In this document: piece by piece, positions 8,435 through 64,000 of the stretch
How the letters are laid out: each line of letters begins with the position of its first letter
Numbering within the stretch: position 1 is the first letter of the stretch
Origin: Macrolepiota albuminosa
Taxonomy: Eukaryota > Basidiomycota > Agaricomycetes > Agaricales > Agaricaceae
Direction of reading: 5' to 3'
DNA: 64,000 nucleotides
Assembly (NCBI GenBank): GCA_027475525.1
Contig: JAMWFC010000116.1
Span: forward strand, 558,001 to 622,000
Notes under the pieces: generated by a model
Seen by the model: only the letters and a program-made list of their open reading frames with translations
What the model was told of the DNA's origin: nothing
Database searches by the model: none
Translations under genes and position numbers: made by a program

Positions 8435-8589
8435 CACCGTGCGCATTGATTGTTACTGTCAGGGTCGCGCGCTCAGGGCTGGGTGAAAAATATGAGGATA
8501 TATTATACGGACACCGTGCGCATTGATTGTTACTGTCAGGGTCGCGCGCTCAGGGCTGGGTGAAAAATATGAGGATATATTATACGGAC
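8435..8589. repeat. Perfect 77-bp tandem duplication no. 1
   Basis: Positions 8435-8511 are repeated exactly at 8512-8588, with one further matching base at 8589. One of ten such duplications in the window with an identical period; probably an assembly join rather than biology (see findings). Confidence 0.9.
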
Positions 8590-8776
8590 GGGAACGACAA
8601 TCACCCTCAGTCATTACACGGAGACTGAGGGTGAGCACGCAGTTTACTTAGAGAACAATGGACGGATTAACTTACGCATACTATAGAGTGACCTCTGTGA
8701 TATTAGGTATGCGAATACAGTCATTACACGGAGACTGAGGAGTGACCTCTGTGATATTAGATTCCTACTTCTAACA
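8590..8776 (+). repeat. LTR-like fragment with conserved hairpin (copia-related)
   Basis: It contains CACCCTCAGT...ACTGAGGGTG (8602-8634), a 10-bp perfect stem. Then comes a direct repeat GAGTGACCTCTGTGATATTAG (8686 and 8740) separated by a second CAGT...ACTGAGG arm. This is the same architecture as the 3' part of the copia LTRs at 41.5 and 46.3 kb with different sequence, so it is probably an LTR of a related subfamily. The 5' boundary may be the TGTTACTG at 8451. No target duplication was found. Confidence 0.5.
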
Positions 8777-9022
8777 ACATGTGCTTACGGTTTCAGCAAT
8801 CATGTAAACATCTCTAGGCAGCAATAATAAAACTTTATCTATCTTAGATTCCTCAGCTTCGGTCTCAGATTTGAGACAGGCGACCCCACATGAACTCAAC
8901 GCATCTCCGGATCTTCGGTGTTTCTCGCACATGGTCTCGTTTGATCCACCTCTGTTGATATAGGGCATTAAACGCATCATAATGACCGGACAATTTTCAT
9001 CCTTTAAATATCTAGATTATCT
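8775..9022 (+). pseudogene. 3' remnant of an F-box gene paralog (left palindrome arm)
   Basis: Plus-strand translation in pieces gives LTVSAIM, a Ser-rich stretch and SPDLRCFSHMVSFDPPLLI, closely matching the C-terminus of the F-box gene at 49.4-49.58 kb (SPNLQCFLRTVSIDPPILI). DNA similarity extends past the stop into the shared 3' flank. The 5' part is missing or replaced by the LTR-like sequence to the left. It lies tail-to-tail with the nuclease-like gene at 9140-10650, the same arrangement as at 47.9-50.3 kb. Confidence 0.65.
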
Positions 9023-9139
9023 AGATTTCTTAAATTTGTAACACATTGCAGACTAATTTATGGACTCGACACTTGAGATAGTGGTCTCCGTAACTGAGCT
9101 CCAAGTTCAAATGTAAAAGGTAACTATAATCTGTCACTA

Positions 9140-10650
9140 TTATCGTATTGATTGTTTACTATGAACAATGTGCATCGCTGCTTTAATGGCTTCCGCTGAT
9201 TGTGTGCTCTGCAAGGTAGTGATGAGTGATCTGGACTTAGTTTCGGGGTGCAGATACTAACCCAAATCAAGATAAGGCTCATCAGGGACTGAAGGGAGCG
9301 GTCTTTTCCCTCTTTCATGACCTCGATGTCCACAAACGTCTCAGCAGTCCTGACACATACCCTTCCCTCTAAGTCTACTATACCGAAGACCCAAGCTTCT
9401 CCACTTGTAAGAGTAAATGCGAGATTTCGTATGTGATCGTCATGACTGGCGCTAACATAGATCACTCAGCCAACGTTGATAGCAAATCAAATTCGTACGC
9501 ACTTCCACTTTGCCATACTATCAAGTATGTCATTGAATATATCAGATGATTCGGTGCACAACACGATCGAACTTACATTGCGAGGCATTCTGCAATCACT
9601 TGCGGTTCATGATCTATGAGGCTTGCACTCACGCGTTTTGCCTCGTAGATATTGAGAGTATCATGTGATGTAAAGAAATTCAAGGCGCGAGTGGCATTGT
9701 CATTCTCCAACAGCACCTTTCGTACTTCTGTTGATATGGGTAATCAGCCTCTAATATGGTCTAGCAACGTTCTGCATGGACTCACTCCGCTTCGGTACTG
9801 GTTTGTCTCCATATGATGGCAAGATGCTCAATAGCGCATAATCTGAGGTTCCTGCCAGATATGTCACGTTGTGTCCATGTCTAATAGCTGGTGGATCGTC
9901 GCTTTCAGAATTGCGCGACCAGATCAAATATTCCGGAAAGAGTACAGTTCTGTATTTTTGGTTCATGCTATTGATTAGCCGTATACCGTGTAAAAGCCAT
10001 GCATCTATGATGATCCTAGATGCTGCTTCAGACTTGATCCAAGGGTCGATTAAATTATTATAGTATAAGCACAAGCATTGACTAACCTTCTTGTTAACGT
10101 TCTTCTGAACTGTCGACAACGTGTCGAGAAGAGGAGCGTTGTTCCAATGATGATTGACAATGTTTGTAATAGTATCAAGGTTATGGGACACTGCTTGACG
10201 TTCCAAGGCCGGGAGTAGTTTGTCAAGAAAGGCAACTGGACTGCCGCGGTCTACATTAATAATCCTTGTCTGTTGTATACCCAGCCTATCGCTCAGAATT
10301 TCCTTGTCCACGTGGGATAATGATATGACCTAGTTATGTAGACACTCAGTATCCGTTCAGCGTCAAGTGATCGAGTGAATCGTTACCACAGCATTTTCGT
10401 CTTTCCTCTTCAAGTTTTGAATAACTTTCACCTGTTGTAGAGCATTGGACGCTTCGTCGTCGAGGTGCTCGAGCTCTTCGAGGTCAGGCAAATGGTATTC
10501 CGCTTGAACTGCTTTGATCTTGTCTTTAATGGCCTTCAGCCCACGCGTAAGGGACTCGAGTTCATAGTCTGTGAGGTCGCTGGACGATCGTTTGTGCTTC
10601 TTGCTCGGTCGTGAATTATCACTTGCGCGCATCGAGGTAGAGTTAAACAT
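9140..10650 (-). CDS. PD-(D/E)XK-like nuclease-domain protein, copy 1 (multi-exon)
   Basis: Starts at ATG 10650 (MFNSTSMRASDN) and ends at TAA 9142-9140. Intron positions match copy 2: exon 1 ends at ...NAV before GTAACG; exon 2 opens VISLSHVDKEIL; further introns follow VNKK, VPKR, CLA, MAKW and LILIW. Three regions are visible: an N-terminal Lys-rich and coiled-coil part with EELEHLDDEASN, a helical middle, and a C-terminal part with GTSDYALL, then about 45 residues later NIYEAKR, then a conserved LAFTLTSGEAWVFGIVDL. The D...ExK spacing suggests the PD-(D/E)XK restriction-nuclease fold; this is motif reasoning, not a search result. About 400 aa. All splice sites are canonical and no stop interrupts the model. 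Function in the fungus is unknown. Confidence 0.6.
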
Positions 10651-10730
10651 GACGTTAGATCGAAGAAAGCTATGAGATGGGGGAACACATCCAGCTGATA
10701 TTTAAGGAAACCCTCGTCCAAATTCTGACT

Positions 10731-11050
10731 CTAACTCCGTAAGCACGAGGCTTGCATGCCTGGAGTACCTTCACGACGAATGAAGGTCATACCCCATTCA
10801 CCAGGAACACGATTGTCTGTCCCAACATGACTGCGCTGAAAGTCCGAAACTCGTGGCGGCGACCAACATAAAGCCCTAACATCTGTAAGCGTGTGGCTTA
10901 CAATGCGACCATCACCGTGTGTGTAGCGATCCAAATCATTCCTAGAAAAATACGAGACATATTGTGGACTGTGATAAATTTCTTGAAGACGAATAGAATA
11001 GACTTACCCTCTGCTTGTGGGTATACTAACTTCTATTGAGATCGTTTCAC
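10731..11050 (-). CDS. Small two-exon gene of unknown function, left arm
   Basis: An exon ending ...ISIEVSIPTSRG (about 11050-11010) is followed by a GTAAGT...TTTCTAG intron and an exon NDLDRYTHGDGRIVSHTL...GMQASCLRS, stopping at 10731. The right arm carries the same structure with one amino-acid change in the last 67 residues. The upstream limit is uncertain because in-frame stops appear before RLVISFIETA. The stop lies 80 nt before the start of the nuclease-like gene in the same orientation. No family recognised. The near-identity of the two copies could reflect gene conversion rather than protein constraint. Confidence 0.4.
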
Positions 11051-11708
11051 GAGCAGTCTCGATAAAAGATATCACGAGGCGTTTGGACACACAGATACCG
11101 GCAAATCAAGTAATTGAGATAGCCAACTCGTGTTTAGTACAAGAGTCGAATAGAGCGTCGAAAAACGTGTACTCAACCAGTGGCTCATTGATCGATCAAT
11201 TATTGCCACAGAAGGAGTCGTCTGGGTGACCCGTCTGCCCGGCAATCAGACGACAAGTATAAGCATGATCTGCAATCGAGGGCTATGTGGCGATCCTAGT
11301 AGACAACAATCAGGCCAAGCCTGACGCCTCGTTTCACAGACAGAACCCATGACAGACATGTGATAGAATGACTCGTAAGTTGAGCAGTGCGACACACAAA
11401 AGGACGGGGCCTGAACAAGGGTCGAGTATGAAATGAGTCACCATATTGTTTGTGTCAATATACCGGAGCGGAGAAGCAATCCCTTGACAGAAGTGAGATA
11501 ACAGAGAAAAACATTCTTGTGAATGAAGTTTGCGAGTGCACCTTGGTATCAATTCCGCACTCTCAACGATTACGATCCGCACTTGAGCTCACTCGAAGAC
11601 TCGGCCTCCTTTTCCCGCCTTTCTCACTCACATCGACATCTCTCTTCCCATTTGCTTACGGTAAGAACGGGCTGCAGAGTGGTTGTTTGATAAAGATGGT
11701 GTTTTCAT

Positions 11709-11782
11709 GGCCGACTAGCTCAGCTGGTTAGAGCGTCGTGCTAATAACGCGAAGGTCTTGGGTTCGATCCCCACGTTGGCCA
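11709..11782 (+). tRNA. tRNA-Ile (anticodon AAT)
   Basis: 74 nt with a 7-bp acceptor stem (GGCCGAC / GTTGGCC, one G-T pair), D-arm GCTC...GAGC, anticodon loop CTAATAA (AAT, read as IAU), T-loop TTCGATC and discriminator A. The A box (TAGCTCAGCTGG) and B box (GGTTCGATCC) are canonical. One mismatch (T-C) closes the T stem. No intron. A T-run at 11792-11795 can terminate Pol III. An identical inverted copy lies at 13040-13113. Confidence 0.95.
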
Positions 11783-11791
11783 TGCCGCTCC

Positions 11792-11804
11792 TTTTGTCCC
11801 TTTT
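11792..11804 (+). terminator. Pol III terminator of tRNA-Ile
   Basis: Two TTTT runs (11792-11795 and 11801-11804) start 10 nt after the tRNA end. Confidence 0.6.
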
Positions 11805-11922
11805 CGTGGCCTTCAATCTAATCTAGTCTATATTACGTAAGGTTCATCGACTTCTTTGCGAATTGTGGCCAAGTTACTTCACTTTTGTTTTTTTTTATTC
11901 CATCGCCTTTGTATATTGACCC

Positions 11923-12716: not shown

Positions 12717-13039
12717 TTGGCACGACATAAGCGTTTATGGATCCAGCAATACACTTCTATCATTATATTCCCCCTGCTCATATCGCATACATATTTATGG
12801 TTTCTCAGCGCATACATAACTTATTGCAATATCCCTAATTAGGTATTCCTTAGTTTCCCTTAATCACAACAATACCTCCATGCAGACGGCGTCCTCCACG
12901 TATTTAAATTTTGCTCGTATATCAATCAGGTAGTCACAACGTACTAAGAAGCCAAGGTTGACAAAACACTGGACAATGATCCACCTGAGAATGGTATTTG
13001 GCGAATGATAATTTTTCCATTTTGGAAAAGTAAAATGAA

Positions 13040-13113
13040 TGGCCAACGTGGGGATCGAACCCAAGACCTTCGCGTTATTAGCACGACGCTCTAACCAGCT
13101 GAGCTAGTCGGCC
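13040..13113 (-). tRNA. tRNA-Ile (anticodon AAT), inverted copy
   Basis: Its reverse complement is identical to 11709-11782 over the 74-nt tRNA. A T-run on the minus strand (complement of 13032-13035) lies just downstream as Pol III terminator. The two tRNAs mark the inner edges of the inverted-repeat arms, diverging around the 1.26-kb spacer with their 3' ends facing inward. Confidence 0.95.
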
Positions 13114-15638: not shown

Positions 15639-15717
15639 AGTCAGAATTTGGACGAGGGTTTCCTTAAAATATCAGCTGGATGTGTTCCCCATCTCATAGT
15701 TTCTTCGATCTAACGTC

Positions 15718-20271: not shown

Positions 20272-22173
20272 GCACATATAGGAAGAATGTCTTTGATTTT
20301 TGCCATCATATGATACCTACCATTCATCTGTATGGTGACTTAGTAAGCAATATAGTAGATACACATGAGAAGCATGTCTGCAATATTTACCATCATGTGA
20401 TACATCCGTTTCTTTGTATGTACAATTACATATATATATAAGAAGAATGTCTTTGATTTTTGCCATCATATGATCCATATCATTACTATGTTAATATTTT
20501 ATATCTATCTATGCTAGAATTTAGCTACAGCAGTTGTGTCTGTTTTACCATGATGTTTGCATCTACTCAGTCTATAATGTTGCAACTATGCTAGAATTTA
20601 GCTACAGCAGTTGTGTCTGTTTTACCATGATGTTTGCATCTACTCAGTCTATAATGTTGCAATCAATCAAGGCTTTATTTGGCTGACATTATTTCCTTGC
20701 CAGATGCATTTGATGTCTAGTCAACTCATAGATCTAGCAGTCTCTGTCAAATAGACATATTTTGTTGGTAATTGCGAGTATTTCTATGTCCTGCCTAGTA
20801 CAGGCACAACAAAACACGATGTTAGATTACAGACAATAGCCGCCACATGAAAAATCATATATCAGAGCAGGTACATGCATTACAAATTATAGTTCCTCAG
20901 TTGCCTTCCATGGAGAGTAATCTCTGAATACCAGGGCTGATATACCTCTCGAAAGATTTGGCATATTGCCACTATTCAATAAACATTTATTGTCACTTGA
21001 TAGGTTTTTTTATCTTGCATAATAGAGAATGGCAACAAATCATGGATTTACTAGATTATGGCAATTACTGAATTCATTCCAACCTATGAAGCAACAACAG
21101 GCTATGCTCAAAGCTAAATATTTCTATTCAGACTTTTCTGAGAGTTATTTGGATTCCCATACTACTTACTTCAGACGCTGACTTCAAATCATATGCATCT
21201 TCTCATATTTATCCACAATCACTGGTTTTTTATCCCTCATTGATGTGTTTATGATGAATCCAGGTCACCACCACTATGTTATTGACGTAATGATTCCAAG
21301 TATTTCCTCACCTAAGTAAAGGTATTTATATGTTTTGTCCTTCCAAACCAGGGCGCATACTACACAATTTGATATCTTCTCCACTCCAATCTTCTCCATG
21401 CCATCCCTCTATTTCATCCTCTATGTCCTTCTCCGCTCCCTCATGTGCCTCTTTGTGGTGCTCCTCCATTTAAGTATGATGACAGAGACGACTCATCATG
21501 CTACAATATTTTTCAACAAGACATTCAACATTTAAGTGGCCGTTGTGCATCAATGTGCCATCATTTAGAGTGCTTCTGAGATGCTATTTCCTTTGGACAC
21601 AATATACATAGCAGCACATCAGCATAATAATGTGTGCAAAGCAGGTGGTGGTGCCATGGGAGGTGCAGAGGCGGGACAAGACTTGATCAATAATATTTTC
21701 AAACAATGATGTTACAGACTTTGACACTTTCAAATGCTGTTATAGACTGAGGGTTTGTTGTCTGCACTAGCAAGACATACATTCAAAGACACACAACACG
21801 TCTTTTCATTCTCAATTTACTACCACATGGAGCACTATCGTGAAATCCTGTTGTGGCACCCTCACACATCTTCCCACTGCCTATCTGGGATCAAGATGTG
21901 TGCCATGACTTATCAGAGGATTCTCCAGGTGATGGAGAGGTACTCAGATATGCTGTATCATATCAGACCCACTCATTTCATTTTTCTGTATGTTTTGACC
22001 TCTTGTTTCGCTTGTTCATTGACCTTGATTCAGGAGCTATACATATTGTAATAAATGGAAACATCTCACAACAAAAGTGTTTGATGAACAAGGAATTCTC
22101 ATTGCTGCATTCCATACTCACAAAAATCAACGGCTTGACAAAGTTTGGAGTTACTCAAATACTTCAAAAGAGG
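20272..22173. other. AT-rich decayed sequence, including 77-bp duplication no. 2
   Basis: A motif aagaatgtctttgatttttg occurs at 20283 and 20442. A 77-bp perfect tandem duplication lies at 20509-20662. The + strand ORF starting 21853 (IFPLPIWDQDVCHDLSED) reads as an eroded coding piece and is cut by the solo LTR at 22179. Nothing else is recognised. Confidence 0.4.
20509..20662. repeat. Perfect 77-bp tandem duplication no. 2
   Basis: 20509-20585 equals 20586-20662 and flanking bases differ on both sides. Confidence 0.9.
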
Positions 22174-22178
22174 TTGAG

Positions 22179-26029: not shown

Positions 26030-26183
26030 GATGGATGAGAATGTCATTACTCATGTAGACTCCTTGTTGGCTGCATAAGACCTATGCAGTATGTTGTTCC
26101 AAAGCTGATGGATGAGAATGTCATTACTCATGTAGACTCCTTGTTGGCTGCATAAGACCTATGCAGTATGTTGTTCCAAAGCT
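26030..26183. repeat. Perfect 77-bp tandem duplication no. 3
   Basis: 26030-26106 equals 26107-26183 exactly, and flanking bases differ. Confidence 0.9.
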
Positions 26184-26367
26184 CATACCTCAAATGGTAC
26201 AACAAATCACCAATCACATACAGGGTCAATGATGATGATGATGGAAATTTTTAATGCTGGCAATATGCAGTATGTTGTTCCAAGGCTTATACCTCAAATG
26301 GTACAACAAATCACCAATCACATACAGGGTCAATGATGATGATGATGGAAATTTTTAATGCTGGCAA
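26160..26367. repeat. Imperfect 104-bp tandem duplication
   Basis: 26160-26263 and 26264-26367 match with two substitutions (aaagctc versus aaggctt). Unlike the 77-bp series it is diverged and so looks like a genuine duplication. A (gat)4-5 run lies inside each unit. Confidence 0.85.
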
Positions 26368-31489: not shown

Positions 31490-32190
31490 AGATATCTCTT
31501 TCAGTGGTATGAACATGGTATTTGCAGGTGATTTTGCTCAGTTACCCCTTGTCACTAGGCACAAAGGATTGGCATTATATAGTAGAACTGTAGATTTAAA
31601 TACCAAAACGTTGAAGGATTAGGAGTTTGCCATAGGCAAGGCTATATAGCATCAGGTAATGACTGTTGTCATATTGCATAAAAATATGAGGCAGAAAACT
31701 CAGTCTACAGAAGACATGGCTTTGCATACTGCTCTCAAAAACATGAGGTATAGAGCATGCACCAAAGAAGATGTGAAGTTTCTCAGGAGCAGATCATTGG
31801 CCATCTCTAATTCAAAAACATGAGGTATAGAGCATGCACCAAAGAAGATGTGAAGTTTCTCAGGAGCAGATCATTGGCCATCTCTAATAGTTGCCCATCT
31901 ATATCCAACAAACAGTTCAGAAATGTTTCTATAATCACTGCACAAAATGTGGACAAAGATGCTATTAATATTATAGGAAGTACTTGATTCACAAGCAAGA
32001 CCCGTCAGAAACTAGTGCGTTTCTACAGCAAAGATAATCCATCATCCAGAAATGGTGATGAAACAAAAACCATTCATCTCAGTAGACTTAACCAAGTGTC
32101 AATTGCACCAAGCCTACTATACTGCACTATTCTGCTGATGACACCCAAAAGTAGATCAATAGCAGATACAGTTTACAGCTACTGACCCGT
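31490..32190 (+). pseudogene. Helitron-type (Pif1-like) helicase fragment, decayed
   Basis: Plus-strand reading gives NMVFAGDFAQLPLVTRHKG (helicase motif II/III region, GDxxQLPPV type), then YSRTVDLNTKTLKD, HQVMTVVILHKNMRQKTQST, NMRYRACTKEDVKFLRSRSL, SNKQFRNVSIITAQNVDKDA and VRFYSKDNPSSRNGDET. This order matches the C-terminal helicase of fungal Helitrons, which unwinds DNA during rolling-circle transposition. Several stops are present and the Walker A half and the Rep nuclease are not seen. The 77-bp duplication 31735-31888 interrupts it. Confidence 0.6.
31735..31888. repeat. Perfect 77-bp tandem duplication no. 4
   Basis: 31735-31811 equals 31812-31888 exactly, and flanking bases differ. 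Lies within the helicase relic and repeats NMRYRACTKEDVKFLRSRSL. Confidence 0.9.
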
Positions 32191-37452: not shown

Positions 37453-37836
37453 ATAAAGTGATCTACCTAAGCTACGTAGAGCATGTGCTACGTAGAAACT
37501 GTTAATTGTTTTGTGCGCTACCTGCGACCTCTAGTGTGGGGTTTCTTGAGGCTCAGGATGTTTCGAAAAAGCCAAGGACTGAAATATATTGGCCATTGTG
37601 GTGCATGTAGGTCCAAGGCCCAGGTCGCAAGACCAAAGAACGGCAGTCTATAAAAATTAGAGGATGGTGCCGTGCAGCAGCCCCGCTTAAGCCATGAGAT
37701 ATCCAGCTTACGCCCCCACTAAGTAAGCAGGAACATCTCTAAGCAGCGTCCCCCCTGAGAGCTTGGGAAATGTTCTCACCCTGGGATAGCATGGTTGGCT
37801 ACCCAGAAGGTCTTATCAACCACTCCTTACACAAAC
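37453..37836. other. ORF1-ORF2 spacer of the LINE
   Basis: 384 bp with stops in all frames before 37795. It has an imperfect repeat gctacgtagagcatgtgctacgtag (37471-37495) that can form a stem-loop, possibly relevant to ORF2 translation. Confidence 0.4.
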
Positions 37837-40800
37837 ATGAATAACACGGTTTATACTTCATCAGGCCTAGGTTTGAGCCTCGAAACAGCTGGGGGATCAA
37901 TGGAGTTGACCACCATCCATGACCTGACATCTGGCTGTGACGAGTACGGCGGTGGGTCCCCTGATCGGGACTCTGCCTGTGAAGGCAGAGATTTTGATGT
38001 TAGTCATTTGGCTAGCAACAACGATAATCCAGAAGACTGGAGTAACAGTCCAAATGTAGTCAATACAACAGTCCCAGAGGAACTACAAAATACCGGTTCC
38101 CCTACTGTGAGAAACACAAACAACCGAAAAAGAGCTAGAACAGCGGTCACGTCAAAAAACACAAAAGCGGCAATTAAATTGGCCTCACTAAATATACGGG
38201 GATACAGAACAGCTGGCACCTCTCTATCTGACTCAAAATGGAACCATGTTAATCAAATTATGAGGGACAATAAGATTGGAATCTTGGCGGTTCAAGAAAC
38301 TCACTTGAATAATGCGAGAAAGGACGAAATAGAACACCTGTTTGGCAAAAGACTCAAAATCCTCCACTCCGCAGATGAGGAAAACCCCACAACAAGAGGT
38401 GGGGTAGCAGTTGTTCTGAACAAAGATTTGACATGTACAGATAATGTAAGTATGAGAGAAATAATCCCTGGTAGAGCGATGATCGTAAAATCAAGGTGGC
38501 ACAAAAATGAAGAAATAACAATCTTGGCAATTTACGCCCCAAATGTATCAGCTAGCAGTGGGGATGAAAGCAAACTCTTCTGGAAGAAAATCCAAGAATA
38601 TACACAAGATCATCCGTCAACTAAGATCGACGTCATGTTAGGGGACTTCAATATAGTAGAAGATGAACTAGACAGACTACCGACAAGGAGAGATCCAGAG
38701 GAAGCTCTGGATGCCCTGGATGACCTAAAGAGAACACTAAGGGTACGGGACGGCTGGAGAAACATTTATCCTGACAAGAGAGCCTATACCTTCAAGCAAG
38801 ATGCCACGCTGTCAATGTCACAGCTGGACCGAATATATGTCTCAGATGATATTATGGAGACTGCGAGGGAATGGATGATCTCAGCCTCAGGTATACCTGG
38901 CACAGATCATGCTATGGTATCAGTGCAAGTCTCCCACCCAGGAGCCCCGGCAATAGGTAGGGGACGGTGGACCCTCAAGAACCACATACTAAAAGACAAA
39001 AAATTCCGTGACTTTGTTGTCACCGAAGGTCATATGGCCTTAGAAGAAATTGATAGCCTTCCCTCAAGCAGGTCTACTGAGTACAATCCTCAAACTATAT
39101 ACAGAGCGTGGAAGGACAAAATACTTAGAACAGCAAAGCAGAGGGACAAGGAAGTAGTCCAAAAGTACAACCGTGAGAGGAAAATACTGGAGGAATCTCT
39201 TGCTAAATCGCAGGATGATCCTGATCTGGATGACCTCACAAGACAAGACCTCATAAGCAGAACAATAAACCAGCTGGAGGCCCTGGAACGAAGAAACCAC
39301 ATGGACAAGAGAGAAATGGTTTCAATCAAAAACAGGCTCGAAGGTGAAACAATGTGTAAATACTGGACAAGGACAAATAAAACGGCAAAGCCAAGAGACC
39401 TTATATATGCACTTAAAAAAGAGTGCGGTCTAGGGCCTAGGACCATCTATGAGTCCAACACAGCGAGAATGGCAGAGTTAGCGAGAGACTATCATGAAAA
39501 ATTACAACACCAACGACGAGATGTACTGCCTGAAGTCCGGGAGGAAAAAACATGTAAGGTCCTGGAGGCAGTGTCTAAGAGCCTGAACAATACCCAGAAA
39601 GGCAGCCTGAAGGAAGATATATCAACAATAGAGCTAAAGAAGGCATTAAAGCACTCAAAGAATAGCTCGGCCCCTGGAATTGATGGGATTACATATGAAT
39701 TCTGGAAATCATTTAACGACCAGTTTATCGGAGCGTCAAAACAATGTAATCAGGAAGAGGATCCAAAACCAACCTTCAACATACTTGGACTGTTGGAATT
39801 AGTCTTTACCGACATACAGAGACATGGATTGATCCCAGGCTCCAATTTTGCAGAGGGGTGGATGTGTCCCCTGTACAAGAAAGGAGAGAAAACGGAAATA
39901 GCAAACTACCGTCCGATAACATGTCTGAACACAGACTACAAATTATTCACAAAAGCATTATCAACCCGCTTAGCAATAATCATTTCTGATATAATACATC
40001 CTAGTCAAGCCGGTTTTATTCCAGGTAGAAGTATCACAGAACAAACCAAACTAATAAGAATGATGATACATTATGCCGAAACTGAGGATCAAAATGGGAT
40101 GATAGTTGCCCTTGATCAGGAAAGGCATATGATAAAATAGAACATGACTACCTCTGGAGGACCCTGGATAGATTTGGGCTCCCATCAGAGTTTATAAACA
40201 CGGTGAAAACTCTGTACTGTCAGGCAGAAACCAAGATTATGATCAACGGGACCTTAAGTTCACCCTGGAAGATAACTCGAGGGGTGAGGCAGGGAGACCC
40301 CTTATCCTGCTTACTTTTCGACTTAGCCATTGAGCCACTGGCCGCGTCACTTAGAGAATCAAATCTAAAAGGGTACCAGATACCAGGCCAACCTGAGAGA
40401 CTAATTGCGAGCCTCTTTGCCGATGACACAACAACGTTTCTATCAAGTGACGACACGTTGGAGGACTTGGAAGTCATACTTGAGGACTGGTGCATAGCCT
40501 CAGGGGCAAAGTTCAACACTACAAAAACTGAGATTATTCCACTTGGGAACACGGAGTTCAGAGAAACGCTAATCTCCAACCGCGAAATGAAAGAAGGAGG
40601 GAAGAAAATCCCCGAAACAATCCATATTGCCAAGGATGGAGAGGCAACCAGAATCCTAGGTGCCTGGTTTGGGAATAAAACTGATGTAGGAGCGCCATGG
40701 ACAAACACGATTGAGAAAATTGACAGATGCCTAAATAACTGGGAGAAAAGCCACCCCACGATGGAAGGGAGAAAGCTGATTGCGCAAATGATAATTGCAG

Positions 40801-41529
40801 GAATGTCGCAATATCTCACCCAGGTGCAAGGAATGCCCCGTCAGGTGGAGAAGTTACTTACTAAGAGAACAAGTAGCTTCATGTGGGGAGACAAAGCCTC
40901 ACAGATTAACATACAAACACTATACCAAAATAAGAATATTGGGGGCAGAGGCCTTGTAGACATCGCTTCAAGAAATAGGGCAATCTCCGTCATGTGGCTC
41001 AAATCATACTTGAGTTTTGGGCCGGACCGGCCCTTGTGGGCATATATTGCTGACATTCTTCTTGCGAAGAATACACCCAAAACAGAGGAAGGTATAGATA
41101 TGAGGATTCGATGGAATCCTTTCCTCCAATCGTGGAAGACCAGAAGCACAGCAACACAAGGCTCGCTCGCAGATTTGACAGACCTACAAAAGACAGCAAA
41201 AGATTTTGGAGTACGACCAGAGGGTCTAGCTTTTGATCGAGAAATTCTAAAGGAAATGCCAATCTGGTATCATTTTGCTGCGGACAAAAAGATTAGGAGG
41301 CTAAACTCAGGGCGTGTGGCAGAATGTCTTAAGTCTAAGCACAACATGAGACTAGTAAAAGACGCAGAGTTGCTTGCATCCTCCCTCAATAGCCAGGACC
41401 ACCGAAACACCGCAGAGTGTGAATGTCTGTCCTGTATGGAAATAGAAAACAGAACAGGTTGCCTCCATCCAAGCCTGTGTGTGTGTAGAGCCAAAGAAAT
41501 GCTTAGTTTGCTACCCAACAGGTGGAACC

Positions 41530-41867
41530 TGTTGTAATTGACTCCACACTGTGGCGGCGGCGTCTTCCCGGTTACTTAAAGGTTTTTTTTTATTCTTTAT
41601 TTTTTCTCCTTTACCTCCTTCGTCTCAGTACGATCGAGCCCGATCGTACTGTATAGTATATCAGCCACCGTGTTCCCATATGTGGCGTCCTGTACGCATG
41701 ACCAACCCTCAGTTCTTCTATCGAGACTGAGGGTGCGTCATTTACCTCCAGATATTTACTACTTACTTACTTCTGGCCTGTAGACTTAGTGTGTTGCTTA
41801 TATCTACAGGTTAAATATACAGTTCTTCTATCGAGACTGAGGACTTAGTGTGTTGCTTATATCTACA
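41530..41867 (+). repeat. 5' LTR of the copia element
   Basis: TGTTGTAATTG...ATCTACA, 338 bp. Contains an 8-bp perfect hairpin CCCTCAGT/ACTGAGGG (41706-41733) and a 59-bp-spaced direct repeat at the 3' end (gacttagtgtgttgcttat at 41783 and 41842). Confidence 0.95.
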
Positions 41868-41932: not shown

Positions 41933-44900
41933 ATGACTTCGACAACCTCTTCCGGGGGAAACGGCAATCCCCCCACATTCCCCGAAGAATTCTTATTCGA
42001 CGGGACGAACTACATAATGTTCAGAGACTGAGTACTCCTAGCGGCAAGACTTAGAGGTGCCGAAGGATACCTTGACGGAACGATCACGACTCCGAACCCT
42101 AAAATGATGGTACCCGCCCCACCAGCAACCGAATGGTGGGACAAAACCCCATCTCACCAAGAGTGGCAGGTCCGAAATGCATGGACCTTAGCGCTAATCG
42201 TATACAATACTAAAAACCCTGTCGGCCTTGGAGTCAAGATGTCAGATACTGCAGCAAAGGTATGGCAAACCTTAAAAGAAGCGTACGGCACCGTCTCAGA
42301 TCTGGGGGCAAACTCGGCTGAAAATGCACTGAGAGCCACAAAGTATGTAGATGGAATGGACTTCCAAGAACATATTTCGAACCTCAGATCGAAATGGAAC
42401 TATGCAGTCGAAAAAGGTGCCGATATTAAGGAGAACCAGTTCCGAGCAATTGTCATTTCGTCTCTCCCAGCCTCCTGGGACTACATTGTTGCATCCCTCC
42501 AATCGACAAAAACCTCAGTTGATCTGATCGCTGGCCTAAATGTGCACTGGGAGCGCCTGAGAGAACGTTTAGCACCCGCAAACAACTCGAGCTCGACAGC
42601 CTTGCTTGCAAAGACCTCGCAAACTCAAAATAAGTTAGTCTGTATCAATTCAAATTGCGGACGCACCGGCCATACCATCGAGAACTGCTACTGGAAAGGG
42701 GGAGGAAAGGAAGGGCAGTTTCCCCCGAATTTTGGGCGCAGAAGAAACGCTTCGCAGGCCCAGACAAACTCAAAACCGCAGACCCCGGCTGCAAATCTAG
42801 CAGCTACTACCACTAGTACCCCCCAGACCACCTATGCCCTGATGGTCAATCCAAATTTCGCGCCCGCAGCTGTCTACGATGATCACTTGAACCCATTGGA
42901 GTCTTACTTATCGAGCGTAGAGGTCTCCGCTAGCGCTTTCGCACTCTCCACGACCGGTGGAGAAACCAGCACCTATGCAGACTCTGGGGCGACGGATCAT
43001 TGTTTTGTGAGGCGTTTGGACTTTGAGGATTATCAGGCTTACCAGAATCCTCGCCAAGGCGTTTCGGCAAACCGCGGTGGTGTATTCAGCATCATGGGGG
43101 AGGGAACTGTGCGGAGGACTGTCACCGTAAAGGGCCAGACATCAGAGTTAGTTTTTAAATCGGCTCTGCACACCCCAGAGCTGGCAGCGAACCTGGTATC
43201 AATCGGAAAGTTCGATGACCTAGGTTTTTCCGTGCTATTCAAGGGAGGGAAAGCAATTTTTGCAGACCCAAATGGACGAACCTTCATGATTGGGGAGAAG
43301 AAAAACCGCATGTACCTCTTGACGTTCACCCCTCCCCATACCGACTCCAAGCCCACGCCTGAAGCCACCCCTGCCATTGTTGCAACGAATCAGGTTCCCC
43401 TTGCGAAGGTGATGGTTGCGACCTCCCTAAATAAGCCGGCGTCACTTGACGTGTGGCACCGACGGTTCGGACATGCAGGCTTGCAGTCCCTTCGGAAGCT
43501 CGATGCCCAGCAGCTCGTGGACGGACTCCACATCCGCGATAAATCTGACTCGCCTGGTAAATGCGAGGATTGCATCTATGGCCGACAGACCACTCGACCC
43601 TACGATGGAACTTCTGAGGGTGTGCAGATCGCAGGGGAGAAAGTGTACATTGACCTTTGGGGACCTGCGACTGTACCATCATTGGGGGGAGCCTCGTACC
43701 TAATGGTGTTCACAGACGCAGGATCGTCGCGGCTGCAGGGAGCGTACCTGGCGAATAAAGCGAGCGAGACCACGTTGACCGCCCTGAAACACTATGTCAC
43801 GGAAACTGAGCGCCAGACCGGAAACAAACTGAAAACCATCCAGATCGACGGCGGTAGAGAGTGGGTGAACAATTTGTGGCACGTGTACTGCCAGGAATTG
43901 GGAATCTTACTGAAACCCGTCGTGCCCTATGCCCACTCACAGAACGGAGTTGTGGAACGGTCAATTCGCACAATCTTTGACGGCGTACGGTGTCTGTTGG
44001 CAGAAAGCGGCCTCCCAAAGAGCCTGTGGGCGGAAGCTGCAGCAACCATTATCTATACACGGAATCTCTTGCCCTCCGCTCGTCACCCAGGAATCGTCCC
44101 AGAGGAAAAGTGGTCAGGAAAAAGGCAGGATGTGGGACATTTACGTCCGTTCGGCTGTATTGGCTATGCCAGGGTCCCCGAGGAATTGATCAGATCTAAG
44201 CTCGACCCTAGATCTGTCAAGTATGTGATGGTAGGATATTCTACTCATGGCTACCGCCTCTACGACAAGACCAACCGTATCGTTGTCACGAGTCGGGATG
44301 TAGTCTTTGAAGAGGGGCAAGGACATCGGACCATCGAAACCTCTGAGGAGGATGATCTGGTAGCTCATGTACCAGTTACTCCGAATCCTGCCACGCCCTC
44401 GATTCCACAACCTAGGCAACAGATCGCTCCACGGATCCGCCAATCTGATGGCCCGCTCCACTCCACGCCACGGGTTACACAACCTGTCCCATGCACTGAC
44501 GACCCTTCCCTTACCCTCCGGCGTTCAACTCGGACTGTCCGCCCATCCCGTGCCATCTTGGAGGCGCGAGAGTCACTGTCCGCCCAGGCGATTGCTCGAG
44601 GAGCAGGGGAGGAGTGGGCAGAGGGGGAGGATGCTCCTGAGGCGATGTCTGCCACCACTACCGCATTTGCCTTCCTCACTTCGACCGGAACTGACAACCC
44701 AGACGCACCTCCACGCAGCTATTGGGATGCCATGAAACAACCTGACCTATGGGTCCCCGCCATGGACGCAGAGCTGGAGGTTATGGAGAGGAAGGAGGTG
44801 TGGTCAGTAATTGATGCGAAGGACGTGCCCCCGGGTAAGAAGGTCGTCGACTGCATGTGGGTCTTCGCGAACAAATTTAATGCCGAGGGAGACATCATTA

Positions 44901-46288
44901 AGAGAAAAGCGCGGTTGGTTGCCAAAGGGTATACACAGATCCAAGGGGAGGACTTCGACGAGACGTATGCCTCTGTTGTCCGCCTCGAATCTATGCGGAT
45001 GACGGTAGCCGTGGCAGCTGCGCTGGGTATGCACGTCTGGCAAATTGATTTCGTTTCCGCTTACCTGAACAGCAAGCTTGAGCACACTGTATTCATGAAG
45101 CCCCCACCAGGTTTTCGAGGGGGGGAGGGTAAGGTGCTGCACCTCAAGAAAACCTTATACGGTCTCATGCAAGGTGGCCATAATTGGTGGCACAACCTTG
45201 ACCGTGCTTACGATGAACTCGGGTATCTTGCGTCGCGAGCAGACGGCTGTGTCAGGTACAAGCGAATCGCTAGTGAACACACCATTACTGATAACTACAA
45301 CGATGATGTCCTAGGGGCTTCTACAACGTTAGAGGGTTCGCGAGTGGCCAAGAGGGAATTAGGGTCTAAATTTGAGGTGAAGGACATGGGCGAGTTAAAA
45401 TATATCCTGGGAGTTCGTTTTGACAGAGATCCTGCCACAGGAGACATATACCTGTCGCAGCGAGCCTACCTGGAACGTATGCTCGAACGTTTTGGTTTCC
45501 GAGCCTCCAATCCTCGACACACCCCCTTACCCCCTGGTCTGGTCCTGACTGAGTCCCAATCGCCCCAAACCGACGAAGACCGAAACTTCATGCTGGACAA
45601 ACCATTCCGGGAGGCATTGGGGTCGTTGATGTGGGCTCAGGCAGCCACACGACCAGATCTGTCTTTTGCGGTTGGGCTCCTCGCACGGTTCCAGAACAAT
45701 CCCGGACCTGCTCACTGGAGAGCGTTGGCTCATGTGATGCAGTATGTGAACGGGACCCTGGAGTACCGCATTGCATATCGACGAGGAGCCGATATCAAAC
45801 CCCGCGGGTATGTCGATGCGGACTACGGCGGTGACCTCGACTCGCGCCGATCTACTGGAGGATACATATTCACGATGGCTGGGGGAGCCGTCTCTTGGAG
45901 TTCCAAACGCCAACCTACCGTTGCTCTCTCCACCACCGAGGCTGAATATATGGCCTTGACCCGTGGGGCACAGCAGGCCATGTGGATGTTTAATTGGCTT
46001 CTCGATGTCGATCTTACTCAAACGCTACCCGCCAGCCTTCGGGTCGATAACTCACCCGCACTTTCGCTCGCGTTGTACACCAAGGGACATGCCCGGGCAA
46101 AACATATCGACATTCGACACCATTACATACGTGAACGTGTTAAGCTGGGTGAGATTGAAGTTACCCACATCCCATCCTCTGAAAATCCCGCCGACTTATT
46201 CACCAAGCCCTTGGGTCGAGTTGCCCATTCACACCTCATTGGACTCCTTGACCTTCGGCCCCAGCTGGAGTCTGGGGGAGTGTTGTAA
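41933..46288 (+). pseudogene. Copia Gag-Pol polyprotein, intact except one in-frame TGA
   Basis: ATG 41933 (MTSTTSSGGN), TGA at 42029-42031 inside FDGTNYIMFRD-stop-VLLAARLRG, then open to TAA 46286-46288, which already lies in the 3' LTR; 1451 codons. Domains with approximate residues: Gag to 300 with a zinc knuckle CGRTGHTIENC (238-253); aspartic protease YADSGATDH (347); integrase zinc part WHRRFGH...CEDCIYG (505-545) and DDE core (YIDLWGP 571, QIDGGREW 635, VVERS 672); RT from 940 with YNDDVLGAS (1120); RNase H with VDADYGGD (1292) and STTEAEYMAL. Gag and Pol are fused in one frame, usual for copia. The YNDD box departs from the common YVDD. A CGA codon would restore Gag, as the surrounding motif suggests. 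Confidence 0.9.
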
Positions 46289-53258: not shown

Positions 53259-53262
53259 GTAT

Positions 53263-58614: not shown

Positions 58615-58806
58615 CTTGGCCGGCGCAGAGTGCCGACCGTGGAGGATGGGGAGGAGGAAGTGCAGGCTATGCCTGGACTAAGCGCAGACCACAACGTGGT
58701 AATGATGAGCGAGGAGGAGTATCAAGCCTCCAAGAGGAGCAACGAGCGAATAATCGCTCCTGAGATTCGAGGCGCAAGGCCTCCAGACAAACGCCATCGC
58801 AAGGCG

Positions 58807-58960
58807 AGACGACGGGAGGACTCAGTGGACGTATGTCCACCTACGTCCTCACGAGTCAAGTTGGAAGACTTGAAAGACAGCATAGACGACGGGAGGACTC
58901 AGTGGACGTATGTCCACCTACGTCCTCACGAGTCAAGTTGGAAGACTTGAAAGACAGCAT
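58807..58960. repeat. Perfect 77-bp tandem duplication no. 5
   Basis: 58807-58883 equals 58884-58960. One base is lacking right after 58960 for the pol frame to continue. Confidence 0.9.
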
Positions 58961-59152
58961 CGAGAGGCGGAAGCCTCAGTAGAGGGGGACACACGGTCTC
59001 TATGGGAGCGACCAGCTCCCCTACCGGAGTACGACTGGGCATACGACCCCCGAATGCCGCAAGAGTGGAACGAGCTGGTGGCAGCCACGTGTGCGCAAAA
59101 TGCGCACCAGAGACGGATGACCGTCAAACCAGCGTATCGCCAGCCAGCCCCG

Positions 59153-59306
59153 GACGAGGTATCCGTAGCGTACTCGCTTGTACGTGAGGGAAGAAGCCTC
59201 GTGGCTTATAAGGCAGCGGCAGCGGGTGCGACGAGGTATCCGTAGCGTACTCGCTTGTACGTGAGGGAAGAAGCCTCGTGGCTTATAAGGCAGCGGCAGC
59301 GGGTGC
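59153..59306. repeat. Perfect 77-bp tandem duplication no. 6
   Basis: 59153-59229 equals 59230-59306. One base is lacking right after 59306 for the pol frame. Confidence 0.9.
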
Positions 59307-61331
59307 CCGCTGAGACTACATATACCTGATGACAGTGTCAATCGGGTGCTCGCAATGCGCGAGCAGTATGCACCGCCGCCTCGGCCACCCTCAGAGACGG
59401 TGGAAGTACTTCCCCCGGTACGCATGAAGGGGAAGCAGAAGGCGACAAGCCTTCGTGAGGAAGATATCCCTCGGTTGCGTCAGCAATGGCAAGAAGAATT
59501 TGCCGACATGGTCAATGGGACCAAGGAGGAGCTCCCGCCATGGCGGGAGGTGAACCATGAGATTAATCTCATAGACGAGAACAAGCAGTATAAGTACCAC
59601 TTGCCGCGCTGTCCGCGCGCCCTCCAGGAGCAACTACGCGATAAGACTAATCGCTACTTGAATGCTCAATGGTGGTCCCCATGCACCACCGCTCAAGCTG
59701 CACCGTTATTGTGCATCCCGAAGAAGGATGGAACCCTTCGAACAGCTCTTGATGCGCGTCAGCGCAATGACAATACCATAAAGGATGTAACTCCTTTACC
59801 AGATCAAGAGGTGATCCGGGAAGACGTGGCTCGGGCGAAGTATCGCTCGAAGATTGACCTTACTGACGCTTACGAGCAGGTGCGCATTCGCACCGAGGAC
59901 GTACCCAAGACCGTATTTGCGTCGATCATGGGTACATTCACGAGCAATATAATGCAGATTGGAGACTGCAATGCTCCAGCAACTTTCCAGAGGCTAATGA
60001 CCTCTATCTTCCGAGACGTAATAGGACGTTTCATGCACGTCTACTTAGATGACATATTCATCTACTCGGATACCATGGAGGAGCATGAGCAGCACCTCAG
60101 AGTCGTATTCGAACGACTGCGCAAGTACAAGTTGTACTTGAAGTGGAAAAAATGTGAGCTCTACGCTCAGAGTATAGACTGCCTAGGGCATGTCATAGAC
60201 GAGCGGGGTATCCACCCTGATCAGGACAAGCTCGATCGTATTCGGGAGTGGCGCACGCCCCGAAACTACAATGACATCCAACGATTCGTTGGCCTTGTCA
60301 ACTACATATCGAGCTTCTTGCCCGATGTCACAGCCTATACTGGGCCACTTATGGCCATGACGCAGAACGGGTCACCGTTCAATTGGAGGCCGTTGCACCA
60401 GCGGTGCTTCGAGATGGTCAAACGGATCTGTACGAAGACTCCGGTGATTCGACCAATCGACCCTAGACGGGACGAGCCAATATGGCTCATTTGCGACGCG
60501 TCCAAGACAGGCGTCGGGGCCATGTACGGCCAGGGAAGCAGCTGGCAGACGTGCCGCCCAGCAGGGTTCATGTCGAAGAAGTTCACGACGGCCCAGCAAA
60601 ACTATGCGGTGCACGAGTTGGAGACTCTTGCCATACTCGAGGCTCTCCTCAAGTGGGAGGATAAGCTGATGGGATACCCCATCCACATCATAACGGACCA
60701 CAAGGCCCTTGAGTTCTTTAAAACTCAGGTGAACTTGTCGCCGCGCCAGCGACGGTGGATAGACTACATGTCGAGATACCAGTTCGACATCACCTATGTT
60801 AAAGGTGAACTCAACAAAGTGGCAGACTGCTTGTCACGCTACTTTGAGAGTGATGTAGTCGGGGAGGCTCACGAGCCTCATGAGTATGTGCAGGCAGACT
60901 GCCGCATAGACCCTGATGGAGAGGATTTACCTCTCCACCGATACCAGGAGCTCAGGGAGCATGTCCTGGAAGTACGCGCTATGCGTGACGATGAACGGAG
61001 GCGAAGCACTCGCCTCAGAGAGCAGCGTGAAGAACGGGACGTAGCCGCCCAGTTGCTCAAGGAGCATGAAACCGTGGACCCAGCATCCACTAGGGAGCAC
61101 GAGCGCCACGATGTACCCGTTACGCTTGCGGAGATGCTCGAAGGCGAATTGCCTTCATCCCAGCCTCCTAGCCTGGTCAATGACGACTTCCGGCAGGAGG
61201 TGGTGCAGGACTATGGCGATGATCCTCTCTTCGCCGAGATAATCGCCAATCCTGACGACCATCCTCGGTTCAGGCATGAGCCTGGTGGACTCATCACGAC
61301 GGAGAACCGTCAAGGGGTGGCAGTGGTATGC

Positions 61332-61485
61332 CTCCCCCGTACGCGTACCATTGTTACGCGGGTCTTGGACCAGGCCCATGCCCTGGTGGGGCACTTTGGT
61401 GCCGCCCGCTCCCCCGTACGCGTACCATTGTTACGCGGGTCTTGGACCAGGCCCATGCCCTGGTGGGGCACTTTGGTGCCGCCCG
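61332..61485. repeat. Perfect 77-bp tandem duplication no. 7
   Basis: 61332-61408 equals 61409-61485. One base is lacking right after 61485 (GHFGAAR to TLGYIRRW). Confidence 0.9.
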
Positions 61486-61640
61486 ACATTGGGCTACATC
61501 CGGCGATGGTATTGGTGGCCACGTATGGCCCAAGAAGTGACTAAGTTTTGCGCGTCCTGCGCAGCGTGTCAGAGGGCAAAGTTGCCCCCTGGATCCCCTC
61601 TCGGGAAGCTACACCAGCTACCCGTGCCGGTGAAACCCTG

Positions 61641-61795
61641 GGACTCAATTGGAATGGACTTCGTAGGTCCCTTTCCCGAGTCCAGAGGGTTCGATTACCT
61701 CTGGGTAGTCATATGTCGGACTCAATTGGAATGGACTTCGTAGGTCCCTTTCCCGAGTCCAGAGGGTTCGATTACCTCTGGGTAGTCATATGTCG
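61641..61795. repeat. Perfect 77-bp tandem duplication no. 8
   Basis: 61641-61717 equals 61718-61794, with one further matching base. Repeats the first integrase Asp motif; collapsing it leaves the frame intact (VICR to MTSMVHL). Confidence 0.9.
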
Positions 61796-62822
61796 CATGA
61801 CGAGCATGGTGCACCTCATACCGGTGCGAACTACGCTGACGGCTAAGGAGCTGTCGTGGATCTACCTGAGGGAGATCGTTAGGCTGCATGGGCTGCCTAG
61901 CACCATTGTGAGCGATCGTGACTCAAAGTTCACGTCTCAATGGTGGAGAGAACTCCACAAACTGCTAGGAGCGCGACTCCTCATGTCGACGTCCTTCCAT
62001 CCGCAGACGGATGGGCAGACAGAGCGGGTTAACCGCAGTATAGGTCAGATTTTGAGGGCAGTTGTTCGCCCTGACCAACGGGACTGGGTGGACTGGTGTC
62101 CACTCACTGAGTTCGCGATTAACGCGAGTATCTCGGAGACCACAGGGTATGCGCCCTTTGAACTCAACGGAGGGTACTTGCCCTCCATGCTGCACGAAGT
62201 TCGTGCTGATACGGTAGCTCACCGTGGAGTTGTCGAGTTCGCCAGGCAGGCCCTGGAGAACATCGCGGCGGCGCATGACGCCATCATAGAGGCGCGAGTC
62301 TTTCAGGCGAAGAACGCCAATCACCGTAGGCGAACAGACCCGCCAATAGCTGTAGGAGCGTTGGTATACTTATCAACGCGTAATCTGAGGCTCCCGAAGG
62401 GACGGGCGAGTAAACTCTGCCCGAAATGGGTAGGCCCGTACCGCGTCCTAGACGCGGAGCCAAGTACCTCCAACTACGTGTTGGAGCTGCCTCTGGCATT
62501 ACAGGAACGACGCATCGTTCCTAAGTTTCATGTGTCGCTGTTGCGACCTTATAGCGCGTCTGACGATGCGCTGTTCCCTAACAGGGCGACCCCGGGCCCC
62601 TATGATTTTGGGGCTCGAGACGATGACGAATGGTTCGTCGAGTGCATAATTGGGCACCGGTGGACTGAGCGTAACACGCTCGAGTTTGAGGTACGATGGT
62701 CCCTGGGGGACACAACATGGGAGCCACACTCCCATTGCTCCAAGCTAGCGGCACTTGACCGTTATTTGGAGTTGAAGGGCGTTAAGCGCCCACATCAATT
62801 AAGTAAGCGTGCCGGCGCTTAA

Positions 62823-63002
62823 TTTGATCGGCAGTGCCGATCGCGGCTTGGCTGAGTTGGTCAGCAGCTGTGGCTGAAACACGTCTTAAAAGGCGAAATT
62901 TCTTTTTCGCCTTTTTTCCCCAACCATGGACAGCATGCCCGTGGACGTGGCTGAAACACGTCTTAAAAGGCGAAATTTCTTTTTCGCCTTTTTTCCCCAA
63001 CC
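62823..63002. other. Spacer between pol and the Pro/Gln-rich ORF
   Basis: Contains gatcggcagtgccgatc (62825-62841, short palindrome) and, in each copy of duplication no. 9, a strong stem aaaaggcgaaattt/ctttttcgccttttt. The T-run after the stem would suit a terminator. No LTR seen. Confidence 0.45.
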
Positions 63003-63025
63003 ATGGACAGCATGCCCGTGGACGT
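62870..63025. repeat. Perfect 77-bp tandem duplication no. 9
   Basis: 62870-62946 equals 62947-63023, plus two further matching bases. It repeats the hairpin and the presumed first exon of the Pro/Gln-rich gene. Confidence 0.9.
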
Positions 63026-64000
63026 AAGTGACAGCAGCAGCAGCAGCTACAGCAGCAGCAATTTGAGAGTACGCCGTCGGTCTTACCGTCGGCTGAAGGG
63101 GGGGGGCAGATGGCTCCCCCGCTGACCCAAAATGCGCCCCAGTGGGGACAATCGCAACAGGCGGTGGGCTTCCCACAGCAGCAGCAACAACCAGCGGCGG
63201 GCTACCCGCCGCAGCAGCCGGTGATCAGTGGCTATCCGCCACTTCAAACCATGCAGGGCAACTTCATGCCCCAGAACGCACCTGTGGGCGGCTATCAGCC
63301 CCAACAACCAGCACCGGGCGCTTATGCGCCACATCACACCGAGGGCCAATTCCAGCAACAGGCCTACGGGGGGCTAGTCAGCCCCCAAGCAGCGCCGGCA
63401 TGGAGGCAGCTTGCCCCTGTACCGGCAACAGGGCAACTGGGGACACATCCTTTTCCCCAGTTTACCGCCCCGGCGCACTACCCTGGGATGGGTGGTGTGC
63501 CCGTAATGATGCCGTACCCCCCGGCTTGGATGGGGGCTTGGGGCGCAATGCCCCAGTACAGCGACTCGCATGAGTCGCAAGCCAAGGGAGGCCGGTCGAT
63601 TTCCCTGTCGACCACAGTACCAACCGATAACCTAGAGGGACGCCAAGCATCCCTCGTGCAGGCCACCGCGGCCATTGAGAGAGCAGAAACTCTCAATACA
63701 GAAATAACCTAGAGGGACGCCAAGCATCCCTCGTGCAGGCCACCGCGGCCATTGAGAGAGCAGAAACTCTCAATACAGAACGGAGCGTCGGTTCATTGTC
63801 CGATGCGCCGACGGAGAGCCTGGCCAAGCTCTCCTTGCTACAGCGGCTGGAAATGCCGCACCAATCCGAGCCCAGCTCGGAAGAAGAGTCGCGTCCTCGA
63901 CGCGACAAAGGAAAAGCACGGGCTGTCGAGCCCACTCACAGCCAGGACTTAGTCCTGGCTACCCTTCTCCAACGACTGGGAGATAACGGGTACGATGTAC
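63003..64000 (+). CDS. Pro/Gln-rich ORF downstream of pol (partial, runs off window)
   Basis: A likely first exon MDSMPVD (63003-63023) ends at GTAAGT. An 86-nt intron ends GGGCAG at 63109, followed by MAPPLTQNAPQWGQSQQ. The protein is rich in QQQQ, GYPPQQP and QPAPGAY, then GMGGVPVMMPYPPAWMGAWG. After duplication no. 10 is collapsed it continues RSVGSLSDAPTESLAKLSLL and RRDKGKARAVEP and remains open at 64000. The style resembles disordered Gag N-termini of fungal gypsy elements, so it could be the start of another element's gag or a third ORF of the 55-63 kb element. No domain is recognised. Confidence 0.5.
63627..63780. repeat. Perfect 77-bp tandem duplication no. 10
   Basis: 63627-63703 equals 63704-63780. 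It breaks the Pro/Gln-rich ORF; collapsing it keeps the frame (ETLNTE to RSVGSL). Confidence 0.9.

What the first reader, a model, noticed from the sequence alone, without database searches (positions are those of the whole stretch)
8435..63780. Ten perfect tandem duplications, all with a 77-bp period
At 8435, 20509, 26030, 31735, 58807, 59153, 61332, 61641, 62870 and 63627 a segment is repeated exactly once, head to tail, always with period 77 and with identity ending 0-2 bases beyond the unit. The contexts are unrelated (LTR region, AT-rich relic DNA, helicase relic, gypsy pol, non-coding hairpin). Biological duplications would vary in length and diverge. 77 is a common largest k-mer in de Bruijn assembly, where neighbouring contigs share exactly k bases. 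The simplest reading is that contigs were joined without merging the overlap, at branch points in repeats.
Basis: partly seen in the sequence, partly recalled or inferred. Interest (0 to 1): 0.9.

Follow-up and report, generated by a model that had tools for sequence, protein, structure and literature searches.

The report
Unmerged 77-base assembly overlaps
The ten exact 77-base tandem repeats are almost certainly a computer artefact: neighbouring pieces of a short-read assembly, which share exactly 77 bases, were glued end to end without removing the shared part, so they say nothing about the living fungus but do corrupt its assembled sequence.

Summary
In detail: all ten sites are exact head-to-tail pairs of period 77. 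They are not local. In about 315 kb of non-redundant sequence sampled from this 100-Mb, 129-contig fungal assembly, 80 of 81 exact tandem pairs with periods 20-300 have period 77, in transposons, kinase loci and arbitrary stretches alike. Four results speak against biology. (1) Exact runs exceed 77 bases only as often as chance predicts (45/24/6/5 observed, 45.0/22.5/8.4/4.1 expected). (2) The other haplotype (contig C54) lacks exactly one 77-base copy at 3 of 3 sites compared. (3) In 17 doubled transposon relatives examined, the copies are exact (15) or 76/77 (2), mostly at other offsets. (4) At 14 of 25 testable sites another copy differs at the base next to the 77-mer, against 604 of 4,521 control draws; at two host sites a haplotype difference lies exactly at the edge. 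Edges of a k=77 de Bruijn graph, joined without trimming their overlap, would look like this. Software and species were not identified; no reads were available.

The parts
8435..8589 (.). Exact tandem pair, period 77, run 78; inside a short repeat
   Evidence: 24 other places match only from about the start of copy 2 onward (query 227-229 or later, to 455 or less); none spans both copies. No C54 counterpart was found; no branch partner was found: the 77-mer is not exact in the two copies fetched.
20509..20662 (.). Exact tandem pair, period 77, run 77
   Evidence: The other haplotype (C54) has one copy and differs (C for T) at the base directly left of the 77-mer.
26030..26183 (.). Exact tandem pair, period 77, run 77; its end overlaps the start of an inexact 104-base tandem
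   Evidence: C54 has one copy and differs (T for C) at the base directly right of the 77-mer.
31735..31888 (.). Exact tandem pair, period 77, run 77
   Evidence: Of the places paired up (C54 included) have one copy, 33 of them with pieces overlapping by exactly 77; 2 are doubled, at other offsets. No edge difference found: C54 differs inside the 77-mer.
58807..58960 (.). Exact tandem pair, period 77, run 77, in a gypsy-type element
   Evidence: 8 exact copies of the 77-mer elsewhere in held DNA: next base C in 1, T in 7; own C.
59153..59306 (.). Exact tandem pair, period 77, run 77, in a gypsy-type element
   Evidence: 6 exact copies of the 77-mer elsewhere in held DNA: next base C in 4, T in 2; own C.
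61332..61485 (.). Exact tandem pair, period 77, run 77, in a gypsy-type element
   Evidence: Many relatives break here into two pieces that overlap in the subject (one copy); 8 places align across the junction, 7 of them examined.
61641..61795 (.). Exact tandem pair, period 77, run 78, in a gypsy-type element
   Evidence: Many relatives break here into overlapping pieces (one copy); 6 places align across the junction and were not examined.
62870..63025 (.). Exact tandem pair, period 77, run 79, just downstream of the long gypsy-type frame
   Evidence: Relatives are single or doubled; 22 places align across the junction, 10 of them examined.
63627..63780 (.). Exact tandem pair, period 77, run 77
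   Evidence: Relatives were not searched for separately; no other exact copy of the 77-mer in held DNA.

Best explanation
The pairs are false duplications made by software. A short-read de Bruijn assembly with k=77 was cut into edges (unitigs) at branch points, where haplotypes or repeat copies diverge. Two neighbouring edges both contain the 77-base branch word. When a later step laid edges or small contigs in order, the shared word was written twice instead of once. The true DNA at each site is expected to hold one copy (inferred from haplotype and paralogue comparison; no reads seen). Shown here: the exact period, its dominance in sampled sequence across the assembly, chance-level extension, single copies in the other haplotype at three sites, and branching at the word's edge at about half of the testable sites. 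Inferred: the de Bruijn graph itself, k=77, the concatenating step, and polishing as the cause of the few 1-2 base mismatches.
For: Ten exact sites. Period spike: 80 of 81 exact pairs of period 20-300 (window 10, gypsy loci 45, kinase loci 16, arbitrary 2-kb stretches 9). Run lengths fit chance extension of a 77-base word (chi-square p 0.80). C54 lacks exactly 77 bases at 3 of 3 sites compared (31735, 20509, 26030), with 6/377, 8/377 and 10/725 mismatches otherwise. Edge differences between haplotypes at 20509 and 26030. Branching at 14 of 25 testable 77-mers against 604 of 4,521 matched control draws. Doubled relatives: period 77 in 17 of 17 examined, 15 exact and 2 with 76/77, junctions at about query 196-261 against 228 in the window. 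At 31735, 35 places single and 2 doubled at other offsets. In kinase locus L068, a 75-80% relative on C95 has one copy at site 1430: its two pieces overlap by 77. Adjacent edges of most de Bruijn assemblers overlap by K, and SPAdes graphs are built with k 21,33,55,77 (passages of PMC7379835).
Against: No reads or assembly graph. 11 of 25 testable 77-mers showed no branch in the held sample, and 55 of 80 had no usable exact copy there; unsampled copies or a missing haplotype may explain this, but that is not shown. At 31735 and 8435 no edge difference was found. Nine period-77 pairs (13 in the larger, partly selected set) carry 1-2 mismatches, which plain concatenation does not give. The two N gaps in the sample show no overlap across them. 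Related copies are sometimes doubled at or near the same place (4 of 17 within 4 bases), which a shared graph node or a shared real duplication could both give.
Confidence: 0.97

Rival explanations
1. Real tandem duplications of fixed length, made by a cellular or transposon-borne process that copies exactly 77 bases (for example fill-in after staggered nicks 77 bases apart).
For: Exact copies of fixed length in transposons and gene loci. Related copies are sometimes doubled at or near the same offset.
Against: No spread around 77; one copy in the other haplotype at 3 of 3 sites compared; edges coincide with divergence between copies far more often than control positions, which a nicking process would not know about; extension matches chance.
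Confidence: 0.005
2. Inherited duplications within transposon subfamilies, amplified with the elements.
For: 22 places (site 62870), 8 (site 61332) and 6 (site 61641) align across the junction as if doubled.
Against: In 17 of those 36 places examined, the pair is exact (15) or 76/77 (2) within each locus although the loci differ from the window, and 13 of 17 junctions lie more than 4 bases away from the window's. Non-transposon sites show the same pattern.
Confidence: 0.005
3. Also an assembly artefact, but of another kind: fixed-length overlaps left by gap filling, patching or contig merging with a 77-base anchor, rather than unmerged graph edges.
For: Sites are patchy: none in 25 of 30 arbitrary 2-kb stretches but 3 in one. 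Mismatched pairs suggest a later editing step.
Against: Branching directly at the edges of the word is the specific mark of a graph node and is not expected of an anchor placed anywhere.
Confidence: 0.02

Closest known systems
K-base overlap between adjacent edges of a de Bruijn assembly graph (PMC7379835, passages read)
   Same: One exact shared length at every junction, at branch points, independent of sequence content.
   Different: Normally trimmed when edges are joined (recalled); here both copies were left in the sequence.
False duplications in genome assemblies, heterotype and homotype (PMC9516828, passages read)
   Same: Duplicated assembly sequence without a duplicated original; [quoted passage not shown]
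   Different: Those classes come from haplotypes or read errors and include whole genes and scaffolds; these have one fixed short length.
Minisatellites and other tandem repeats (recalled)
   Same: Head-to-tail copies.
   Different: Always two copies, one length, unrelated units, one copy in the other haplotype where compared.

Membership tests
Unmerged k-mer overlap artefact | One fixed duplication length across unrelated sequences | tested here: met
   80 of 81 exact pairs at 77; the window's ten units unrelated
Unmerged k-mer overlap artefact | No homology beyond the word except by chance | tested here: met
   Run-length fit, p 0.80
Unmerged k-mer overlap artefact | The word is a branch point: another copy has a different neighbouring base | tested here: met
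   Met as an enrichment, not at every site: 14 of 25 testable against 604 of 4,521 control draws; 2 of 3 C54 comparisons
Unmerged k-mer overlap artefact | Homologous places hold one copy | tested here: met
   3 of 3 C54 alignments; 35 single and 2 doubled elsewhere for 31735; mixed single and doubled relatives at gypsy sites
Unmerged k-mer overlap artefact | Junction absent from raw reads; k=77 in the pipeline | not testable with these tools
   No reads, graph or assembly record held; species not identified
Biological tandem duplication | Lengths vary and copies diverge with age | tested here: not met
   Single length; copies exact in 15 of 17 doubled relatives although loci differ
Minisatellite | Variable copy number of a related unit | tested here: not met
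   Two copies at each of the ten sites, unrelated units

The most novel reading that the evidence does not exclude
A minority of the pairs are real: this fungus has an enzyme or repair route that duplicates exactly 77 bases at places where sequence copies diverge, in one nucleus of the dikaryon but not in the other.
Probability: 0.004. Interest if true: 0.95.

Novelty: not a real feature. Interest (0 to 1): 0.15.

Why it matters
It has no biological novelty, but practical weight. At 0.15 sites per kb in arbitrary stretches (9 in 60 kb; 95% bootstrap 0.03-0.30), the 100-Mb assembly would hold about 15,000 such pairs (roughly 3,300-30,000), some 1.2 Mb of false sequence (extrapolated). Since 77 is not a multiple of three, a pair inside an exon shifts the reading frame, so gene models, pseudogene counts and transposon dating from this assembly need care (inferred). 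A period histogram of exact two-copy tandems is a quick test for such assemblies.

Tried and rejected
Biological readings (fixed-length duplication, inherited subfamily duplication, minisatellite) were tested and set aside as described. A first idea that the 8435 pair begins exactly at the edge of a repeat was dropped: the repeat's similarity continues to the left of the word in the two copies fetched. Overlap across N gaps was looked for in the two 100-N gaps seen and not found. The first branch test (16 of 27 against 637 of 4,843) counted other copies that themselves lay in a tandem pair; I reran it without them and with ten more loci (14 of 25 against 604 of 4,521) and use the second.

Species and software: three protein searches gave only distant relatives (best identity 54%, 50% and 46%), the named ones mostly mushroom-forming fungi, with some plants for the copia-type protein. 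A paper search with '129 scaffolds' as one term listed 15 of 497 papers, none holding that term. Paper searches aimed at this kind of artefact listed no paper whose title or abstract start describes this signature; two searches returned nothing. I read passages of two papers only. Searches for a second haplotype at kinase loci L051 and L068 (E up to 1e-30) found only 66-80% relatives, and L036 has repeat-like relatives of 71-91%, so no haplotype test was possible there. One search (plasmid collection) gave no match.
Full report
WHAT IS THERE. The window is G000:C107:558001-622000, strand +, of an assembly of 100,137,612 bases in 129 contigs. All ten pairs are present as described: period 77, exact, runs of 77-79 bases. 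The units are unrelated to each other and the chance expectation is nil. Four sites (8435, 20509, 26030, 31735) lie before base 32,000; six (58807-63780) lie in or just beside a gypsy-type retrotransposon (frames; the name is my reading of the translations, no domain search was run).

HOW FAR IT GOES. Non-redundant material: the window (64,000 bases), 26 gypsy loci (88,791), 28 protein-kinase loci (102,189) and 30 stretches of 2 kb (60,000), in all 314,980 bases. Twenty of the 2-kb stretches begin at seeded random points (the first 20 of 60 drawn over 15 contigs of known length, shortened to 2 kb; fetched); ten more were taken at round positions on ten other contigs. Left out: five loci identical to others (L006, L014, L030, L055, L075), L001 (the window itself) and L081-L089, which were fetched for particular sites. 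Of 81 exact tandem pairs with periods 20-300, 80 have period 77 and one has period 26. By class: window 10; gypsy 45 (0.51 per kb); kinase 16 (0.16 per kb); 2-kb stretches 9 (0.15 per kb, in 5 of 30). Inexact pairs (80-99%, periods 40-160) in the window and L002-L080: nine at period 77, and one or two at each of 50, 51, 63 and 104. The nine have 1-2 mismatches and all lie in gypsy loci; L005 and L006, counted separately there, are identical.

SHARP ENDS. If two independent flanks meet a shared 77-base word, the run should exceed 77 only by chance: expected 45.0, 22.5, 8.4 and 4.1 for +0, +1, +2 and +3 or more; observed 45, 24, 6 and 5 (p 0.80). Duplication guided by short homologies would give more long extensions (general knowledge).

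THE OTHER HAPLOTYPE. Several kinase genes occur as near-identical pairs on different contigs (L057/L058 98.9%, L063/L064 99.8%, L065/L066 98.8%), as expected if both nuclei of a dikaryon are partly present (inferred). For this part of the window, contig C54 (minus strand) is the 98-99% counterpart. At 31735, 20509 and 26030, C54 aligns with one 77-column gap and otherwise 6, 8 and 10 mismatches in 377, 377 and 725 aligned bases; the 26030 alignment has one further gap, of 12 bases. At 20509 C54 holds the 77-mer once and differs at the base directly left of it; at 26030 it holds it once and differs directly right of it. At 31735 C54 differs inside the 77-mer, so it is not the branch partner there. 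The 104-base tandem beside 26030 is a useful contrast: it is present in both haplotypes and its copies are not identical.

BRANCH POINTS. Of 80 non-redundant sites, 25 have the 77-mer exactly elsewhere in the held DNA, outside any tandem pair; in 14 of the 25 some other copy has a different base next to it (13 on the right, 2 on the left, one on both). Control draws in the same loci: 604 of 4,521 matched draws. The binomial tail is 6e-7, but sites and control draws are not independent. An earlier version without the tandem-pair exclusion gave 16 of 27 against 637 of 4,843. In the window, 58807 (others C 1, T 7) and 59153 (others C 4, T 2) are of this kind; the other eight have no exact copy of the word in the DNA held then.

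RELATIVES. For 31735, I paired 74 of the 78 rows (left out: the window itself and three short rows). They give 35 single places (33 with an overlap of exactly 77, the others 74 and 75), 2 doubled places and 2 unpaired pieces; itself scored 40 of 113 candidates. The two doubled places (C100, C26) hold 76-of-77 pairs at other offsets, about 20 and 150 bases away by my reading of the coordinates. In kinase locus L068 the relative on C95 has one copy at site 1430: its pieces 923-1457 and 1458-2163 overlap by 77 bases in C95. For 62870 and 61332, 22 and 8 places align across the junction (my count, which scored 40 of 428 and 40 of 861 candidates); I fetched 10 and 7 of them, over a spread of identities. 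Six further places align across the 61641 junction and were not examined. All 17 have a tandem of period 77, exact in 15 and 76/77 in 2. Full alignments to the window are 87-99% identical, which also counts bases misaligned between offset junctions; the second alignments are 90-100%. Junctions map to about query 196-261 (window 228), within 4 bases of it in 4 of 17; mapping is approximate where alignments have gaps. An inherited duplication should share its junction and let its copies drift; these mostly do the reverse.

MECHANISM. Adjacent edges made by most de Bruijn assemblers overlap by K bases, and that paper built SPAdes graphs with k 21,33,55,77 (passages of PMC7379835). That 77 is SPAdes' usual last k for reads of about 150 bases is recalled. 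Joining such edges without trimming produces this picture: both copies of the branch word, at haplotype differences and at divergence points between repeat copies. Density is highest in the gypsy family, where a graph should branch most. The mismatched pairs are most simply explained by later polishing with reads from several copies (inferred, untested). Which program did this is unknown.

LIMITS. No reads, no graph, no named assembly. The sample is about 0.3% of the genome, and the genome-wide extrapolation is wide (0.03-0.30 sites per kb). The finding is a data error built on a known property of assembly graphs, not biology.

Noticed in passing
G000:C92 offset 506,815; C90 offset 236,323; C114 offset 351,482; C110 offset 44,048 (L117-L122, L125-L128, L005/L006, L013/L014, L029/L030, L074/L075): Long exact duplications within one contig at constant offsets: 500 of 500 bases identical at 2 of 3 probes in C92 and at the single probes in C90 and C114, and identical locus pairs of 3.3-3.6 kb. 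L005/L006 and L029/L030 carry the same 77-base pairs in both copies, so these may be contigs placed twice; identical real copies would look the same.
   Followed up: partly
G000:C107:2259169 and 2443150 (L054, L055): 3,759 identical bases 183,981 apart on the window's own contig, including the same 77-base pair, but a probe at 2350001/2533982 does not match (132 of 500).
   Followed up: partly
window 26160-26367: An inexact 104-base tandem present in both haplotypes, apparently genuine.
   Followed up: partly
L084 and L085; window about 8408 onward: A short repeat beginning TGTTGAG and ending TTCTAACA in two copies elsewhere; it looks like a solo LTR (my reading), in L084 with a possible CATGC flanking duplication and none evident in L085.
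   Followed up: no
window 42032-46288: A single open 1,418-aa Ty1/copia-type frame; best relative 54% identical over 99%.
   Followed up: no
window 37759-41537: A LINE-type endonuclease and reverse transcriptase in two overlapping frames; relatives of the first frame carry endonuclease and, in part, RT domains, 46% identity for the best-scoring one.
   Followed up: no
L046:177-276 and L061:3289-3388: Gaps of exactly 100 N with no overlap between their flanks; fixed-size gaps suggest a scaffolding step.
   Followed up: partly
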